DNA of 64,000 bases from Salinivibrio sharmensis (lineage in GTDB: Bacteria > Pseudomonadota > Gammaproteobacteria > Enterobacterales > Vibrionaceae). Below, one piece after another: positions 49,108-60,446 of the stretch. The position numbers were made by a program, and so were the translations under genes. The notes under the pieces were generated by a model. The model did not search any database. It was not told where the DNA came from and saw only the letters and a program-made list of their open reading frames with translations. The stretch covers positions 1 to 64,000 of the forward strand of contig NZ_MUFC01000012.1 of the NCBI RefSeq assembly GCF_001995985.1, in the 5' to 3' direction. Position 1 is the stretch's first letter, and every line of letters starts with the position of its first letter.

Positions 49108-50313
49108 GTGAGTGACTTACAACAGGGAATACTAGTTGTTGATGATCAGAAAGTGGTTCGGCACACCCTATTTTTATGTCTTCAAAACCTCGGTTTTACA
49201 AACGTTTATCAGGCTGAGAACGGTCGCGAAGCGAAAAAACTCCTAAACACTCACTCGATTCAATGCGTATTTTGCGATCTCAATATGCCCATTGAAGATG
49301 GGTTTGAGGTGCTTAAATTTCTAGACGCACAAGCCTATCAAGGCGCCATTGTATTAATGAGTGGTGAGGAAGAGGAAGTACTGGCTTCAACCGCCAATTT
49401 GGCGCGTCTTTATCAACTGAATATCATTGAATGTGTGGCCAAGCCACTTTCATTTGCAACAGTGAAACGACTGCTGACCGCCAGTGAACGTGTACTAGAT
49501 ATGGAGGCTCACCATGCGCCGCATGCACTGCCACCACTCACCGCCAAGTTATTAAAAGGATACATAGATAAAGGCGGGCTAAGGGCGTTTTTCCAGCCGC
49601 AAATTTCTTTGTCCTCAGGTCGCCTTAAGGGGTTTGAGGTGTTGGCACGGTTGTTCAAACCTGACGAGAGCATGGTTTTTCCTGACCTGTTTATCCCCAC
49701 CGCAGAAAAGCATATCGAAAGCATAACCGATCTGACCAAGCGTGTTATTGAGTGTGCGTACCAAGATATTAATCAATATGGGCAAGATATCGCCACTTTG
49801 TCATTTGCCTTTAATATATCCGCCAAAGTGTTGGAGGCCCCTAATTTTCCCCAGTGGTTACAAGCGACAACCGCCAAGTATCAATTGCGTCCTGAACAGA
49901 TTATCTGTGAGTTAACAGAGACAGCTTTTACCACTGATCAAGCGACCATTGATACCCAAATGCTGCGGTTAAAAATGATGAAATTTAAATTATCCATCGA
50001 TGATTTTGGCACAGGCTATTCGTCTATTGCCCAGCTGCATTCGATTCCTTTTGATGAGCTGAAAGTGGACAAGCGCTTTGTGCTCGATTGTTTATCGAAT
50101 ACTAAATCTGCGGCTGTGGTTGAACAAAGTATTCAACTCGCCAAAGCAATCGGGGTAAACGTTGTGGCGGAGGGGATTGAGACTCAAGCCGTATGTGACT
50201 TTGTTAAGGCACTGGGATGTGACATTGGACAAGGCTACTTGTACGCCAAACCAGAACCACTGAATGTATTTGATTGGCGTACAGCCAGTATTCAGCGTGG
50301 GAATCGTGAATGA
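49108..50313 (+). CDS. Response regulator with EAL phosphodiesterase output domain
   Basis: A 401-residue protein: receiver domain (residues 1-125; phosphorylated Asp57 in [12 protein letters not shown], acidic DD near VVDDQK) joined to an EAL domain (residues about 150-400). The EAL domain keeps the metal-binding Glu in GFEVLARL (here EVL rather than EAL), [19 protein letters not shown] and VVAEGIETQ, so it probably hydrolyses cyclic-di-GMP. GTG start with GAAGAGGG upstream. Its stop overlaps the next gene's start (ATGA at 50310-50313). A likely output of the hybrid kinase that follows. Confidence 0.92.
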
Positions 50314-53300
50314 AGTTTTCTGTGAAGCTACCTATTATTTTGTTGATGCTGGGCGGCTTAATGCTGGCATCCGTTACCGTGGTCTCTTGGAAAGGCCGCG
50401 ATCTGCTTCAAGAAAGCACATTAACTAACATAGAGCGAGAAGCAGCACTACTGATTCGATTGATTGAAAGGAATCTTTTTGAAAGGTATCACGATGCTCG
50501 CGCGTTTCCTCTGTCGCTAGGGGAAATTGAATCAGATAGCCTGAGTAACCAACAAGTAAATGACAATACGGTAAGAAACCTTAACGAGTTAATCGCTAAT
50601 TATAAAGTTTACCGTCGTATTGCGATTGTGAGTATGGAGGGCGAATTACTGGCGATAAATAACCAAAATACGCATGGTAAATCGCTCCCGCCTCTTGACC
50701 TTTCCCAAGCACAAATTATGAACAGTGTTTGGTTCAATGAGATCCTTAACGGCCAAACCCTCGCCCCCGAACAACCGAATAGTACGTATGTCACTGGGCC
50801 AGAGCGTTTTATTTTCGGCTCCAATGCCTCTTCCTACGACATGATCTTTGCTTCTGTGATCCGTAATACCGCCAACCGCCCTGTCGGTATTTGGGTCAAT
50901 GTGGTCGATTTCTCTACCGTTGAGTCCATTGTGGCTGAAAGCTACGACTTACTCGCTAAACGCGGGCTAGTCAGTGCGGAATTAACCCTCTTAGACCGCC
51001 AGGGCCGTATTATCGTTGATTATGATCCTGTCGGACAAAATGAATCAACGTATCAAAGGGACTTTCAAGTTCTGGGTAAATTAAACTTGGCGACAAACGG
51101 TGTCGAAGGGGCGAGATTAGCCGTTGCTGGATTAACGGGGTCAAACATCTCAACACACTATCGGAAACAAGTGGATCAGGTCACCGGGTTTGCCCATACC
51201 GAAGGGGCGTATGATTATCCAGGACTGGGTTGGTCAGCGATGATCCGCGTCGAAGTGGGGGAGGCGCTGCTTGCGCCCAATACCCTGTATAAAAATTCTT
51301 TCATCATGACTGCCACACTGCTGTCGTTGATTGTACTGCTTGCCTTCTATGTATCACGGCAAGTTTTTAAACCTTTAGGGCAGCTAAGCACCGCGGTGCG
51401 AAAACTGGCGCGGGGCGAGCATAACTTTTCCCTACCACAGCGAGACAGAGGCGATGAAGTGGGGGTCATGGCCAGTGAGCTGCTCAAACTGCGTGATATG
51501 GTGAGCGAGCGAGAAAGCTTAATCAGAGAAACGGAAGAGCAGCGCTTTCAGTTAGATATCCAAAGTCGCGCTATTGAAGCGACTGCAACAGGGATCATCG
51601 TCTCTGATGTTAGGCTTGCAGATTACCCCATTATTTATGCCAATAAAGCGTTTGAGACCTTAACAGGCTACAGCTCGAAAGAAGTGGTGGGTAAAAACTG
51701 TCGCTTTTTGCAGGCCGATGATCGTGATCAGCCCGAGTTTGAACGCCTCCGCTATGCCCTTAAAAACGCCTTATCTTGCTCCGTAGTGGTGCGCAATTAT
51801 AAAAAAGACGGCACACTTTTTTACAATAGTCTACGCCTCGATCCTATTTTTGATGATGCGGGCTCGTTGACCCATTATATCGGGATGCAGTCGGATATTA
51901 CGGAGCTTAAGCAGGTAGACGATGAGGCTAAATTTAAACTCGAACAAGAAATACAACGCCGAACCCAAGACTTACAAGAATCCGAAGGGCGTTTGAGGAC
52001 GGTGTTTGACACCGCACTTGATGGCATGGTGGTGATCGACACCCAAGGCAATATTCTCGAAGTTAACCGTTCATTGGAGCTTATCTTTGGGCGCATTCGT
52101 GAAGAGCTGGTGGGAGAAAATGCCTCTATTTTGATGCCAGATAAGTATAAAGCCCATCACGATGGGTTTATAAGTCAATATCAGTTAACAGGGAGTAAAA
52201 AGCTGATTGGCACACCACGAAAACTGCAGGGTGTGCATAAATCCGGGCGTGAGTTTCCCATTGAGGTATCCGTTGGCGAAACCTGGTTTGGCGATACGCA
52301 GGGATTTGTCGGTGTTATCAAAGATATCACAGTCGAAGAAGACGTTAAGCAGCGAGAGCAACGTCTTCAATATGCGCTAAAAGAAAGAGAAGTCATCTAT
52401 CGAACTGCTTTTGATCAGGCGGCAGTGGGTATATGTCGTGTTGACCTTGAGGGTAATTTTATTGAGGTCAATGACAGAATGAGCGAGATACTGGGCTATA
52501 GCCAAGAGGCGCTGCTACAACTTAGTTACCAGGACATTACTCACCCAGATCATCTTTCAACCAGTCATGCGCAAGTCGCGCAACTCACCATAGGGGAAAG
52601 CCGCTCGTTTTCCATGGACAAGCAATATATCACCCAGGGCGGTGAAGCCTTATGGGCCACGGTATCGGTGTCTACTGTGATGGATGAAGACGGCTCGCCT
52701 AGGTATTTTATTGCGGCGTTGGAAGATATTAGTCAACGTAAAGCAATAGAGCGTGAATTGCTCTCTGCAAAAAGGGCGCGAGATGAGCTGCTTCGCGGTA
52801 TGCAGTTAGCCTCTGATGCGGGAGGGATTTGCAATTGGTCAATGGATGTCACTACGGGGGAGCTTAAGTGGGACGATAACATGTATCGTTTGTATGGGAT
52901 TGCACCTGAAGCGCCGGTAAATTACGAGGTGTGGCAGGCGTGTATTCATCCCGATGACCGTCAAAATGCGATTAAAGAAGTAGAAACGGCACTAAACGAT
53001 AGCAACGTCTTTAATGCTGAGTTTCGTGTGATCCACCCTAAGACTCAGCGAATCAGTTGGATTAAAGCCGCGGGCAATGTGGTGAAAGATGATCAGTCGG
53101 GGCGAGAAATGCTCTTTGGCATCAACCTAGACATTACGCATGATCGACAGACACAAGCCAAGTTAGAGAAGGAATCCGTGATGGCGAGAAATGCCAATGA
53201 GGCAAAATCTCGCTTCTTAGCCACCATGAGCCATGAAATTAGAACGCCCATGAATGGTGTGATTGGAATGGTGGATTTACTAAAAGAAACGCCTCTGGAG

Positions 53301-55094
53301 CCAGAGCAATCTAAAATGGTGTCGACGATTCGAGACTCTTCTTTCTCGTTACTTGAGATAATCAACGATATTCTTGATTTTTCCAAAATCGAATCAGGGC
53401 AAATGGAGTTGGACCCGACCGACGTCAATGTACTCGACTTAATTGAGAAAACCTTGGACGCACTATGGGTTAGCGCTGATCAAAAAGGCGTCGAACTCTT
53501 TTTCTCACATGACTATGCCACCCCTGACTTTATCTTGGTTGATCCGGTGCGCGTGCGCCAAATTCTTCTTAACTTATTAGGGAACGCCATTAAGTTCACC
53601 AGCAAAGAAAAAGAGGGAGGCCATGTCTTTGTCAAAACAGCATATTGTCAAGACAGTGAGATGCTTACGTTGAGCATCCGAGATACTGGCGTTGGCATGA
53701 CCCACGAACAGATGGATAAACTGTTCAAGCCCTTTACACAGGCGGATAGTTCCACCACGCGGAGATACGGGGGAACGGGTCTAGGACTGAGTATTTCCAA
53801 GTCATTTGTCGATATGATGGGTGGGGATATTGAGGTTGAGAGTGAGTTTGGTAAAGGCAGTGAGTTTATAGTCCGAGTACCTGCCCGCAGTAGCGCCAAA
53901 ACCCATGAAACCAATCGACGTTATCCGTTTTCTGCGTTTTCTTTTGTCTTATTTATCGATCATGAACCGCTTGAGAACACCTGTATAGCATTGCTTGAAA
54001 GCTTATACCCCCGTGAGATTCTGGATGCAAAAGTCACGGTGCCAGCTAACTGGGACCCGGATACTATGATTGCGATTACAACAGATGAAAGAATGTTGGA
54101 AAGACATCAGGGCGTGCGTTGCCTATTGCTTGGGGATGATTTAGGTGGAAATGACGCCTATAAGTATCCAGGGCCTTATCGGTTAAACCGATATCCCCTT
54201 AAACCCAGTGAATTTGTACTGGGCGCTGCAGTGATGTGCGGGCTTGAAAGCCCGGATGTTGATTGGAGTGAAGCGGTAAATGGCGATGCCTTTGCCGATA
54301 GCAGTCAAGTGGATGCACAAGCGTGTGGCACCATTTTATGTGCTGAAGATCAGCCAACCAACCAGCTCGTTCTTGCCAAGCAGCTAAAACAGCTTGGTTA
54401 TCAATTTGAAATGACATCGGATGGCAAAGAGGCACTTGAGAAGTGGTATCAAGGGGAGTATGCAATGCTCTTAACAGACTGTCATATGCCCGAAATGGAT
54501 GGTTTTGAATTGGCGGCTGAGATAAGACGATTAGAGGCTGAAGAAAATCGCGAGCGTACGTTAATAATTGCCATCACCGCCAATGCACTCGTGGGAGAAG
54601 CGGATCACTGCTTGCAATCGGGGATGGATGATTATGTTTCCAAACCTGTTGAGATCCAGACACTTAAACGCGTGTTGGCATTGCGCCTTAGAGGGCGAGC
54701 GTTGAGAAAGGGCGAACCCGCAGTGGCTCAGACTAGCGAAGAAGTCTCTCATACGGAACCGCTCATCGATGACCGTCAGCTCGAGAAAGTCATTGGCAGC
54801 TCAGACCAGGAAATGAAGTCCGCTATATTGTCTATGTTCTGGGACGGCGTATCGGCAGATGTCAATGCGCTCGAACAGGCGATTGTCGGCGGTGACGATG
54901 AAAAAATAAAAGCGATTGCTCATGGGGCAAAAGGCGCATCTGCATCAAGTGGGGCGATGCGCTTGAGCGAGCTGTTCCGAGTCATCGAAAACAGCAGTCA
55001 CGATCTTGAACAAGTAAGAACTGTGTTTACCGAAATAAGTGCAATGATGACCGCAATTGAAACCGATCTGCGGGAAGAAAAAATCATTCAATGA
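50310..55094 (+). CDS. Hybrid sensor histidine kinase with LOV, multi-PAS, receiver and Hpt domains
   Basis: A 1594-residue membrane kinase. TM helices at residues about 6-26 and 331-352 flank a periplasmic Cache-like sensor. A HAMP segment (353-405) is followed by a LOV-type PAS (about 418-540) with GKNCRFLQ containing Cys464, [11 protein letters not shown] and GMQSD. Three more PAS/PAC units lie at about 560-680, 690-815 and 830-955. HisKA has His975 ([11 protein letters not shown]); the ATPase has NAIKFT, DTGVGM and [11 protein letters not shown] pseudo-receiver without Asp precedes a true receiver (Asp1390 in [12 protein letters not shown]) and a C-terminal Hpt (His1538, [11 protein letters not shown]). 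Translationally coupled to the REC-EAL gene. Blue-light control is inferred, not shown. Confidence 0.93.
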
Positions 55095-55110
55095 ATGTAA
55101 GAGGCGCGAT

Positions 55111-56031
55111 GTGATACATATCAACACGCAAGACCAAATTCCTTTTGAGCACTTTGAAAAAGCGAGTCGCGATACACTCAAATACTTGAATAAAAAGTTT
55201 GGCTACGGGACGTGGATGATGACTCGCAAGCATGAAGATCAATGGGTCATCTTACAGGTAGAAGGTAACAAATACGGTATTGATGAATTGACCACTCTCA
55301 GGTGGAGCGATTCAATGTGCAGCCGTATGGTGCAGGGCGAAGGGCCGCGTTGGGCGCCTGATGTTGACAATGTCTCCGCGTATGTGAACGCGCCAATTTA
55401 CCAAGCTGAGACAATTAAGTCTTATATTGGGATACCCGTTTGCTATTCGGATGGTAATTTATTTGGCACTTTGTGCGCGATAGACACAGAACCAGTCGAT
55501 CGCATCCCGCCTGATGGGTTAGAAACCATCGAGCTTGTCTCTAAATTACTTTCAACGCTATTACAGCTTGAGCTGCAAAACATCGACGTTTCGCGGAAAC
55601 AAATGAGTTTTTTACCCTCACAATTAAAAGATCATGAAACCGGTTTTCTTAATCGATTAGGTTGGTCTTTATATTTAGAAAAAGAAGAAAGCAATATCCG
55701 CTCGGTGGGTACACCCGTGCATGTGGTGGCTATTGATGTTTCTCTGGGCAACCAATCAACGCACTTAAAGGATACGGCAATGACCACCCTGTTTGTGTCC
55801 ATTCTCAATGGTGTCTTACATGACGGTGGCTATATTGCCCGATTGGGGGAAGATATCTACACCATGCTCTGTGCCAATAAAACCGAGGAGCAAATGGCAG
55901 TGATGGTTGAACGTCTTGCCAACGAATTGAGTGAGGCTGAGATCCCTGTCGCTATTGGCTTCAAAAAACACGACTATGGTGATGACTTGGATGTCACTGT
56001 GATTGCTGCCATCAAAAGTGTCCGGCAATAA
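55111..56031 (+). CDS. GAF domain protein with degenerate GGDEF domain
   Basis: A 306-residue cytoplasmic protein. GTG 55111 is preferred: AGAGG lies six bases upstream, while earlier in-frame starts would overlap the kinase gene. Residues about 15-150 are a GAF domain (SDSMCSRMVQGEGPRWAPDV, KSYIGIPVCYSDGNLFGTLCAID). The C-terminal domain has GGDEF topology, but the active-site motif is RLGEDIYTML, so cyclase activity is unlikely; it could bind GTP or act as a regulatory partner. Third gene of the LOV/EAL cluster, 16 bp downstream of the kinase. Confidence 0.88.
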   Translation: MIHINTQDQIPFEHFEKASRDTLKYLNKKFGYGTWMMTRKHEDQWVILQVEGNKYGIDELTTLRWSDSMCSRMVQGEGPRWAPDVDNVSAYVNAPIYQAETIKSYIGIPVCYSDGNLFGTLCAIDTEPVDRIPPDGLETIELVSKLLSTLLQLELQNIDVSRKQMSFLPSQLKDHETGFLNRLGWSLYLEKEESNIRSVGTPVHVVAIDVSLGNQSTHLKDTAMTTLFVSILNGVLHDGGYIARLGEDIYTMLCANKTEEQMAVMVERLANELSEAEIPVAIGFKKHDYGDDLDVTVIAAIKSVRQ

Positions 56032-56195: not shown

Positions 56196-56245
56196 GCCCT
56201 GGTGGTGGAATTGGTAGACACAAGGGATTTAAAATCCCGTGGGGT
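56196..56245 (+). pseudogene. 5' half of a tRNA-Leu(UAA) gene
   Basis: The sequence GCCCTGGTGGTGGAATTG onwards has a leucine-type acceptor, D arm (GGTAGACAC) and anticodon stem-loop with TAA, then loses similarity after the anticodon stem (CCGTGGGG..). There is no variable arm, T arm or 3' acceptor. It looks like a tRNA-Leu gene cut after the anticodon arm. The 3' half is not found in this window. Confidence 0.7.
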
Positions 56246-56322
56246 GATAGATTCGTAAGTGCATGTTTTACAAGAAAAAATAGACCGTTGTCCAAACTAG
56301 TTAACACATGTGACTTCAAAAA

Positions 56323-56409
56323 GCGGGGATGGTGGAATCGGTAGACACACGAGATTTAAAATCTCGCGGCGTACGCGCTGTGCGGGTTCAAGTCCCGCTC
56401 TCCGCACCA
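56323..56409 (+). tRNA. tRNA-Leu (UAA)
   Basis: An 87-nt gene including CCA. Acceptor GCGGGGA pairs with TCTCCGC (one G-T), D-loop TCGGTAGACAC, anticodon loop TTTAAAA giving UAA, a long variable arm GGCGTACGCGCT typical of class II tRNA, and T-arm GGGTTCAAGTCCC. It sits at the border of a mobile element and is a plausible integration target. Confidence 0.95.
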
Positions 56410-56413
56410 ATAC

Positions 56414-56447
56414 AGACCTTGAGCTTCGGCTTGAGGTCTTTTTTTGT
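56414..56447 (+). terminator. Terminator after the tRNA-Leu gene
   Basis: GACCTTGAGC-TTCG-GCTTGAGGTC with one internal mismatch, followed by seven T. Confidence 0.85.
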
Positions 56448-59536: not shown

Positions 59537-60115
59537 TCATCCGTCATTCATCGCGTCTCCATATCCCGCTTCCGCCTGTAGCGAGGCAATCATATTCTTT
59601 AACTGCATATTCTCAATGGTCGATAGACTGTTACCCTTACCGTCCATCAAAAACTCTAACTGAGGCTTAGTCATAGGCTTGTTTGCGATAAACATAGCAT
59701 ACAGGCGGTCTACCTCATTGCCATTCACGTCGCTGTCTGCTGGCGACATAAGCTGTTCTGGCTCATTCACCTGTAAACCAGTCAATTCAGCAAACAGCTT
59801 CTTGTTCAGTCGATACACATTCACCAGATGACCACCTTTGTCGCTGGTCGAAGAATGCTTTTCAATGATACCGGAGGCGACCAGACGCTTCACATTGGCA
59901 CTTACGGTCGTAACAGACCAACCTGTATCACGCGCCAAGCGTTTCAGTGATGGGTAGCACACAAAATCGCTGTCAAAATAAATAGATAGCTGCATTAGAA
60001 GAAAGCGTTCGTTTGCCTTTAGGTTAAGCGTTTGTGGGGGAATCTGTCCTAGCATCTTGGTCATCTCAAACTGTGTTTCAGGAAATTTGATAGCTTCGCG
60101 CTTAGTGTTTTTCAT
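59537..60115 (-). CDS. Winged-helix DNA-binding protein
   Basis: A 192-residue protein, start ATG 60115 (MKNTKREAIKFP) chosen over an earlier in-frame Met at 60190 that has no support. The segment LKRLARDTGWSVTTVSANVKRLVASGIIEKHSS is a winged helix-turn-helix of the ArsR/MarR or Rep-like kind, followed by VYRLNKKLFAEL. The C-terminal region is helical and unrecognised. It may be a replication initiator or repressor of the element. Confidence 0.75.
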   Translation of the reverse strand: MKNTKREAIKFPETQFEMTKMLGQIPPQTLNLKANERFLLMQLSIYFDSDFVCYPSLKRLARDTGWSVTTVSANVKRLVASGIIEKHSSTSDKGGHLVNVYRLNKKLFAELTGLQVNEPEQLMSPADSDVNGNEVDRLYAMFIANKPMTKPQLEFLMDGKGNSLSTIENMQLKNMIASLQAEAGYGDAMNDG

Positions 60116-60446
60116 TATAGCGTGCCTAAAGACTGTTGTGTACCTATCAAGAAACACAAGAAGAGTATCACTGGCTACTTGAATGCACAAGCGACTAATA
60201 AAAATTACTGTTCTATTTGATTGTTTAATAAACTTAACTAGGCATCCCTATGGTACTTATGTTTCTTGAGACCCCCTTTTAAAACTTTATCTGGCGACCC
60301 TACTCAAGCAAGTGGTAACAAACAAATCATTATAAACAAAACATTAAAACAAAGGGCTTACGCCGCTACCGCTCAATTTTTTTCTGTCTCTAAAGTGAAA
60401 AAGATAAGTGCAGAGCATCTTGATACTCTTGGGCTGTAATCAAGAC
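60116..60446 (+). other. Gap between divergent element genes
   Basis: About 330 bp containing the presumed promoters of both flanking genes. A stretch TTGAGACCCCCTTTTAAAACTTTATC at about 60267 distantly resembles part of the structured repeat. Nothing else of note. Confidence 0.35.

What the first reader, a model, noticed from the sequence alone, without database searches (positions are those of the whole stretch)
49108..56031. Three-gene LOV-kinase, EAL and degenerate-GGDEF module: candidate blue-light control of cyclic-di-GMP
The kinase carries GKNCRFLQ (Cys464), the canonical photoactive motif, with the flavin-contact residues [11 protein letters not shown] and GMQSD in place. It is coupled by overlapping stop/start to a REC-EAL protein, and 16 bp later comes a GAF/degenerate-GGDEF protein. 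The same kinase has a periplasmic Cache-like sensor, so it would integrate light with an external chemical. The combination in this order is not one I recognise.
Basis: partly seen in the sequence, partly recalled or inferred. Interest (0 to 1): 0.7.

Follow-up and report, generated by a model that had tools for sequence, protein, structure and literature searches.

The report
Light-and-oxygen kinase with c-di-GMP phosphodiesterase
A salt-loving marine bacterium carries a small gene cluster in which a blue-light sensor, sitting next to what looks like an oxygen-sensing haem domain in the same kinase, probably controls an enzyme that destroys the lifestyle-switching messenger cyclic-di-GMP; the parts are known, but in the papers I could search I saw this pairing of sensors only in an engineered protein.

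Summary
In a Salinivibrio genome three same-strand genes lie at 49108-56031: REC-EAL, a Cache-HAMP-LOV-PAS-PAS-PAS-HisKA-HATPase-REC-Hpt kinase, and GAF + degenerate GGDEF (REC-EAL comes first, not the kinase). The LOV domain keeps the seven positions that I aligned to YtvA (Cys464 = C62); REC-EAL keeps its phospho-acceptor and EAL residues; the GGDEF signature is gone in 9 of 9 copies, yet that gene is under purifying selection. REC-EAL adjoins the kinase in 20 of 24 relatives (Salinivibrio, Vibrio, Pseudoalteromonas, Shewanella and others). Best mechanism: a Hpt-to-REC phosphorelay setting phosphodiesterase activity, as in RocS1/RocR and ArrS/ArrR, here with light input. If it binds haem, this is a natural counterpart of the engineered light-and-oxygen kinase YHF. 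Cofactors, light and oxygen response, phosphotransfer and sign are inferred, not shown. New variant of a known kind.

The parts
49108..50313 (+). REC-EAL response regulator (401 aa): REC residues 8-119 (D12, D13, D57, S85, K112), EAL residues 153-382 (E177, N236, E268, D298, D299, K319, E355, Q375)
   Evidence: Pfam; best PDB hit RocR 3sy8 over residues 7-396, 8e-46; listed residues checked; each listed position is invariant in an alignment of 11 of the 20 known neighbours
50310..55094 (+). Hybrid histidine kinase Cache-HAMP-LOV-PAS2-PAS3-PAS4-HisKA-HATPase-REC-Hpt (1594 aa); inferred relay H975, D1390, H1538
   Evidence: Pfam; residues checked; relatives aligned
50397..51314 (+). Periplasmic Cache-like sensor, about residues 30-335; ligand unknown
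   Evidence: weak dCache_1 hit below cut-off; no PDB sequence hit
51351..51497 (+). HAMP domain (residues 348-396)
   Evidence: Pfam 25.8 bits, cut-off 25
51552..51920 (+). LOV domain (about residues 415-537), photo-Cys464 at 51699-51701
51987..52349 (+). PAS2, FixL/DosP-type haem-PAS candidate (about residues 560-680), His617 at 52158-52160, Arg637 at 52218-52220
   Evidence: 13 of 14 PDB hits are chains of FixL or of the DosP/YddU haem-PAS; conservation; motif
52377..52754 (+). PAS3 (about residues 690-815), no FixL or DosP match
52827..53144 (+). PAS4 (PAS_3 type, about residues 840-945)
53187..53909 (+). HisKA and HATPase_c, phospho-acceptor H975
54327..54689 (+). Internal REC domain, D1390
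54807..55079 (+). Hpt domain, H1538
55111..56031 (+). GAF + degenerate GGDEF protein (306 aa from GTG); signature position reads LGEDIY from residue 245

Best explanation
A light-gated two-component module for c-di-GMP breakdown that seems to move between genomes as a unit. Blue light forms a flavin-Cys464 adduct in the LOV domain; the neighbouring PAS2 probably carries haem (His617, Arg637) and reports oxygen; the periplasmic Cache-like domain reports an unknown ligand. The signals run down a rigidly spaced PAS stack to HisKA (H975) and set the kinase/phosphatase balance; phosphate passes H975 to D1390 to H1538 (Hpt) and then to D57 of the co-encoded REC-EAL protein, changing its c-di-GMP phosphodiesterase activity. 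The GAF/degenerate-GGDEF protein is not a cyclase but a constrained accessory or regulatory protein. Shown here: domain content, kept key residues, kept linkage, purifying selection, presence/absence at one site. Inferred: cofactors, light and oxygen response, phosphotransfer, mobility, accessory role. The sign is open; if it follows ArrS/ArrR (phosphorylation inhibits the phosphodiesterase), a signal that raises kinase activity would raise c-di-GMP.
For: LOV complete at seven YtvA-aligned positions. REC-EAL matches RocR over nearly its whole length; acceptor and EAL motif residues are invariant in the 11 proteins aligned, of 20 known neighbours. ATGA overlap. REC-EAL lies next to the kinase in 20 of 24 relatives: 18 of 18 with the photo-Cys, 2 of 6 without it. 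PAS2 has 14 PDB hits at E up to 0.001, 13 of them FixL or DosP/YddU haem-PAS chains, best 3.3e-25; these 13 stand for few proteins (FixL of rhizobia, DosP). PAS3 of the same kinase as a control has 11 weak hits, best 5.1e-5, none named FixL or DosP. His617 and Arg637 are kept in 12 of 24 kinases, all 12 with photo-Cys. Spacing LOV-PAS2-PAS3-PAS4-H975 is 143, 134, 135, 34 residues in 10 of the 11 His/Arg carriers measured (the window's included; L044 has 133 for the second; split L022 not measured). dN/dS of the three genes is 0.06-0.11 against two congeners.
Against: No biochemical evidence. The Cys/REC-EAL association is not significant once kinship is counted: 4 changes of Cys, 3 of EAL, 1 independent pair on well-supported branches and 4 on all, sign test p = 1 (which also warns of long branches); the naive Fisher p of 0.0014 ignores kinship. 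Two Cys-less kinases (L029, L030) keep REC-EAL, and three more distant Shewanella kinases (L091-L093) have the LOV motif with no REC-EAL match in the stretches fetched. A kept His in a FixL-like PAS does not prove haem: BvgS PAS has it and bound none (passages of PMC3726324). BjFixL R206, H214 and I218 are Gln, Lys and Thr here (numbering and roles recalled). Twelve of 24 relatives lack the His/Arg pair, so oxygen sensing cannot be general in the family. PvrR, another REC-EAL protein, did not need its Asp in a reporter assay (passages of PMC3842833). In 17 of 24 relatives another response regulator (xREC) is linked to the kinase, so REC-EAL need not be its only target.
Confidence: 0.6

Rival explanations
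1. Light-only module: PAS2 keeps the FixL-like sequence but binds no haem, as BvgS PAS; the system is a LOV-driven version of RocS1/RocR.
For: BvgS precedent (passages); R206, H214 and I218 of BjFixL not kept; Shewanella relatives and L028 lack the His and still keep LOV and REC-EAL.
Against: His and distal Arg are kept together in 12 of 24 kinases, which include the five Salinivibrio rows and the Pseudoalteromonas row; PDB matches are nearly all haem-PAS; PMC10468136 (passages) calls this His the primary determinant of haem binding in the FixL/DosP cluster.
Confidence: 0.35
2. LOV is used as a flavin redox or oxygen-tension sensor, or is only structural, and the true input is the Cache ligand.
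For: Six relatives lost the Cys or the whole LOV while keeping the Cache region and kinase core (L029, L030, L031, L068, L069, L072). In four Shewanella rows (L039, L040, L041, L070) the position of YtvA R79 is Ser or Ala (read by eye).
Against: In the window kinase every tested photochemical residue is kept. The Gln of GxQxD is kept in 16 of the 17 Cys-bearing rows displayed (L042 has Leu; L089 was not displayed), and PMC9098866 (passages) reports that LOV receptors without the Gln still signal.
Confidence: 0.15
3. REC-EAL acts independently of the kinase (constitutive phosphodiesterase), and the kinase addresses xREC-type or other regulators.
For: PvrR behaves so in a reporter assay (passages); xREC is linked in 17 of 24 relatives.
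Against: In the window's genome xREC finds matches only to its C-terminal REC part (38 matches), while the REC-EAL gene overlaps the kinase gene; receiver residues D12, D13, D57, S85, K112 are invariant in the 11 proteins aligned.
Confidence: 0.15
4. The third protein is a still-active diguanylate cyclase opposing REC-EAL.
For: Sequence match to a GAF-GGDEF cyclase, PDB 4zmu, 2.1e-8.
Against: The GG(D/E)EF motif is missing in 9 of 9 copies (LGEDIY, LSDEIF, LNENIF, LNESIF, LNDSIF), and by eye no RxxD inhibitory site is seen.
Confidence: 0.04

Closest known systems
RocS1/RocR and ArrS/ArrR (hybrid kinase with REC and Hpt, plus REC-EAL)
   Same: Kinase ends in REC and Hpt; partner is REC-EAL; RocR is the best PDB hit of REC-EAL. 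PMC11841396 passages describe Hpt-REC interaction and phosphorylation that lowers phosphodiesterase activity.
   Different: Those kinases have two periplasmic binding-protein domains and one PAS; here the input is Cache-like, LOV and three more PAS, and a GAF/degenerate-GGDEF gene follows.
Erythrobacter flavus LOV-1477 / DGC-2902
   Same: LOV kinase controlling c-di-GMP through a separate response regulator (passages of PMC12172448).
   Different: There the regulator makes c-di-GMP; here it would destroy it. The original 2023 study was not read.
YHF, engineered from YtvA LOV and FixL
   Same: LOV and haem-PAS in series in one kinase; answers blue light and oxygen in a positively cooperative manner (passages of PMC6798134 and PMC4469895).
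   Different: YHF is designed; the present protein is natural, predicted membrane-bound, has two more PAS domains and its own REC and Hpt. Haem binding here is not shown.
SL2 (LOV-GGDEF-EAL) and BlrP1 (BLUF-EAL)
   Same: Blue-light control of EAL activity (passages of PMC8846402 and PMC4844311).
   Different: Sensor and enzyme are in one protein; no phosphorelay.
PvrS/PvrR
   Same: REC-EAL; NCBIfam PvrR model hits at 1.2e-70, 238.2 bits.
   Different: Far below the family cut-off of 580; PvrS has no Hpt of its own (passages).

Membership tests
Photoactive LOV domain | Photo-Cys and flavin contacts (YtvA C62, R63, Q66, R79, N94, N104, Q123) | tested here: met
   choice of positions partly recalled
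Photoactive LOV domain | Flavin binding and blue-light adduct | not testable with these tools
   needs protein
FixL/DosP-type haem-PAS | His on helix F as proximal haem ligand | tested here: met
   His617 aligns to BjFixL H200; kept with Arg637 in 12 of 24 kinases; criterion from PMC10468136 passages
FixL/DosP-type haem-PAS | Distal Arg (BjFixL R220) | tested here: met
   Arg637; role and number recalled
FixL/DosP-type haem-PAS | Hydrophobic distal pocket (BjFixL I218, L236, I238) | tested here: inconclusive
   Thr635, Val653, Val655; two conservative changes, one not; roles recalled
FixL/DosP-type haem-PAS | Propionate contacts BjFixL R206 and H214 | tested here: not met
   Gln623 and Lys631; roles recalled; the domain is therefore called a candidate, not a member
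FixL/DosP-type haem-PAS | Bound haem | not testable with these tools
   needs protein
RocR-like REC-EAL response regulator | REC with acceptor Asp and pocket residues plus EAL with its motif residues | tested here: met
   catalytic roles recalled
RocR-like REC-EAL response regulator | c-di-GMP hydrolysis controlled by phosphorylation | not testable with these tools
   needs protein
PvrR (NCBIfam NF052596 equivalog) | Score over curated cut-off 580 bits | tested here: not met
   238.2 bits
Hybrid histidine kinase with Hpt | HisKA, HATPase, REC, Hpt with H, D, H | tested here: met
dCache_1 | Pfam gathering score 45 | tested here: not met
   23.6 bits; called Cache-like only
Diguanylate cyclase | GG(D/E)EF signature | tested here: not met
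   absent in 9 of 9 copies

The most novel reading that the evidence does not exclude
A natural kinase that joins a blue-light LOV sensor and a haem oxygen sensor in series, computes a joint light-and-oxygen signal as the engineered YHF does, and writes it onto c-di-GMP breakdown through a phosphorelay; a mobile cassette (about 8 kb in Salinivibrio) that gives marine bacteria a combined sunlight/oxygen cue for settling or leaving.
Probability: 0.4. Interest if true: 0.68.

Novelty: new variant of a known kind. Interest (0 to 1): 0.52.

Why it matters
How several PAS sensors in a row combine their signals is an open question; PMC6798134 (passages) says the molecular bases of integration in the engineered YHF await elucidation. 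A natural LOV/haem-PAS kinase with relatives that have lost the photo-Cys, the haem His, the whole LOV, or the REC-EAL partner offers ready-made natural variants for that question. It would also tie sunlight and oxygen, two linked cues in shallow brines and surface water, to the c-di-GMP lifestyle switch in marine bacteria.

Tried and rejected
Active cyclase for gene 3: rejected, signature lost in 9 of 9 copies. Membership in PvrR: rejected by score. Functional link to cydAB or grpB upstream: not assumed, since in the Vibrio, Shewanella, Pseudoalteromonas and other non-Salinivibrio loci examined no CydB or GrpB match was found beside the module. A statistical case that loss of photo-Cys goes with loss of REC-EAL: failed after counting kinship. 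Search for the same tandem elsewhere: 74 loci (L097-L170; 56 given chosen by me, out of many more matches, whose lists were themselves cut) from 369 and 398 genomes that partly overlap gave 2 co-occurrences of loose LOV and haem motifs in one frame, both judged by eye to be chance (the haem-like motif lies before the LOV and outside a FixL-like PAS), and none with the window's arrangement; one protein (L168) has a FixL-like PAS with the His and, further on, a LOV-like domain without the Cys. My haem patterns were too strict; one search used a looser one. This is a sample, not proof of absence. Promoter scan: 10 promoter-like sites against 11.6 (sd 3.6) in shuffles; terminator-like sites 14 against 7.1 (sd 2.6). 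Structure prediction of gene 3 and xREC never ran, so no fold comparison was made. A script error (a wrong record taken as the window) made the EAL, KIN, GAFG, GrpB and CydB rows void; one search repeated it correctly.
Full report
WHAT IS THERE. Three plus-strand genes run from 49108 to 56031: REC-EAL, then the kinase with a 4-base ATGA overlap, then GAF/degenerate GGDEF from a GTG 16 nt after the kinase stop. Pfam gives the kinase HAMP, several PAS, HisKA, HATPase_c, REC and Hpt; the periplasmic part is Cache-like only below cut-off. An 11-pair terminator-like hairpin at 56414-56439 lies after a tRNA-Leu (56323-56409), not directly after the third gene.

LOV. Against the PDB the best hit is 4.4e-33, and many of the 60 hits shown (of 158) are named LOV photoreceptors. 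On the printed YtvA alignment C62, R63, Q66, R79, N94, N104 and Q123 are identical. In the own genome the only other matches at E up to 1e-12 (1.1e-18 and 2.0e-15) lie in a PAS-GGDEF-EAL protein and a PAS-MCP protein in which my pattern for the Cys motif found nothing.

REC-EAL. RocR (PDB 3sy8) is the best hit over residues 7-396, 8.2e-46. D12, D13, D57, S85, K112 and the EAL residues E177, N236, E268, D298, D299, K319, E355, Q375 are present and invariant in 11 aligned proteins, of 20 neighbours known in the end; which of them are catalytic is recalled from work on RocR and other EAL enzymes.

PAS2, directly after LOV, has 14 PDB hits at E up to 0.001: 7 FixL chains (best RmFixL 3.3e-25), 4 DosP chains, one named heme PAS sensor protein, one named yddU (the older name of DosP/PdeO), and a GGDEF-protein PAS at 2.3e-4. 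The thirteen are different sequences of few proteins. As a control PAS3 of the same kinase has 11 weak hits, best 5.1e-5, none named FixL or DosP. His617 and Arg637 align to BjFixL H200 and R220; R206, H214 and I218 are Gln, Lys and Thr; L236 and I238 are Val (BjFixL numbering and roles recalled). Of 24 kinases, 12 keep both His and Arg, with the LOV motif and the His exactly 156 residues apart in each: window, L021-L027, L037, L042, L043, L044; one more (L029) keeps the His without the Arg; L031 lacks the domain; the other 10 lack the His. All 12 keep the photo-Cys. PMC10468136 (passages) holds this His to be the primary determinant of haem binding in the FixL/DosP cluster and finds it in 60% of that cluster; PMC3726324 (passages) is the warning case, BvgS, with the His but no haem. 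FixL-like PAS domains are common: many matches cover only the PAS2 half of the query. I put haem binding near 0.55, a judgement.

RELATIVES. Searches found the kinase in 12 of 197 Vibrionaceae genomes at E up to 1e-40, the window's own included; 4 of 394 genomes of the order at E up to 1e-60, own included; 8 of 129 of one genus, Shewanella by contig identity with named records, of which 5 match over nearly the whole query and 3 only in part; 2 of 12 of another family, both already seen; 10 loci in the named genome collection; and 4 of 72,556 plasmid records at E up to 1e-40. Three partly matching Shewanella kinases (L091-L093) were kept apart as outgroup. Photo-Cys: 18 of 24. REC-EAL next door: 20 of 24; two of these 20 (plasmids of V. 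coralliilyticus and V. europaeus) are split or cut as annotated. By Cys: 18 of 18 with Cys and 2 of 6 without have REC-EAL. GAF/degenerate GGDEF: 9 of 24. A further gene, here called xREC (about 380 aa, N-terminal part without Pfam match, REC at the C-terminus), is linked in 17 of 24 (in L027, L029 and L030 identified by place, length, opening residues and, for L027 and L030, the Pfam REC) and missing in the five Salinivibrio kinases, L028 and L031; in the own genome only its REC part finds matches.

A maximum-likelihood tree of 26 kinases (24 minus the split L022, plus three outgroup rows; LOV columns left out) needs at least 4 changes for Cys, 3 for REC-EAL, 3 for GAF-GGDEF and 4 for xREC; 5 of 23 inner branches are open, long branches are warned of, and independent pairs are too few for any test. 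So the Cys/REC-EAL link is suggestive only.

THE THIRD GENE. It aligns to the GAF-GGDEF cyclase 4zmu at 2.1e-8, but the signature is gone in 9 of 9 copies. dN/dS against two congeners (L021, L023) is 0.08 and 0.07, as low as for REC-EAL (0.07, 0.11), kinase (0.08, 0.06) and the neighbour grpB (0.13, 0.05) (synonymous change is high for L023, and saturated for L024 in these three genes, so no ratio was obtained there). It is kept for something other than making c-di-GMP.

MOBILITY. Within Salinivibrio 5 of 8 genomes have the module, in all five beside grpB and cydB. In L065 and L066 grpB is followed by the LysR gene that in L021 lies beyond the module and an HD gene; about 8 kb of L021 is missing there. 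The third genome without it ends its contig there. On plasmid records, kinase and REC-EAL occur in Vibrio coralliilyticus, V. europaeus and Pseudoalteromonas xiamenensis, and kinase with xREC but no REC-EAL in V. tritonius. Movement as a unit is my inference; loss from one ancestral site would also fit the Salinivibrio pattern.

MECHANISM. The simplest reading is a Hpt-to-REC phosphorelay on REC-EAL. ArrS/ArrR (passages of PMC11841396) show Hpt-REC interaction and loss of phosphodiesterase activity on phosphorylation, though in that study deleting arrS raised, not lowered, c-di-GMP; PvrR (passages of PMC3842833) is the counter-example that ignored its Asp. YHF, an engineered LOV plus haem-PAS kinase, answers light and oxygen cooperatively (passages of PMC6798134 and PMC4469895; mention in PMC9614035; the 2010 paper itself was not read). 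The near-constant PAS spacing here fits such conduction.

NOVELTY. The parts are known; blue-light control of c-di-GMP is known, also by a LOV kinase with a separate regulator (PMC12172448 passages). My ten library searches, limited to open-licence papers, showed me no natural LOV/haem-PAS kinase and no LOV kinase paired with REC-EAL, judged from titles, starts of abstracts and the passages read; supplements and surveys such as Glantz 2016 (seen only as a reference) may hold it. Hence new variant of a known kind.

Noticed in passing
56198-56409: By eye, a partial tRNA-Leu-like copy just upstream of the intact tRNA-Leu(TAA), followed by a resolvase gene (56887) and an HTH/DnaD-like gene (59537-60190): looks like an integrative element at tRNA-Leu right after the module.
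   Followed up: partly
L024:2019-9012: In Salinivibrio proteolyticus the module is unevenly diverged from the window: REC-EAL 57%, kinase 72%, GAF-GGDEF 86% identity, suggesting recombination inside the module.
   Followed up: no
L025:9047-10195 and relatives: xREC, a linked 380-aa response regulator with a C-terminal REC and an N-terminal part of about 260 residues without any Pfam match, in 17 of 24 relatives but not found in this genome.
   Followed up: partly
L042:3233-4437 and L043:3530-4423: REC-EAL genes split or cut in the plasmid copies of Vibrio coralliilyticus and V. europaeus, while kinase, GAF and xREC genes look whole.
   Followed up: partly
L021:9086-9820: An HD-domain gene directly after the module in 3 of 8 Salinivibrio genomes; no match at E up to 1e-60 in the window's genome.
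   Followed up: no
L042:4434-9206: A LOV domain with photo-Cys but Leu in place of the conserved Gln.
   Followed up: no
L031:4825-8781: Enterovibrio kinase that lacks the LOV and PAS2 domains and the neighbouring REC-EAL but keeps the Cache region, PAS3, PAS4 and the kinase core.
   Followed up: partly
L168: A protein of another genome with a His-bearing FixL-like PAS and, further on, a LOV-like domain without the photo-Cys.
   Followed up: no
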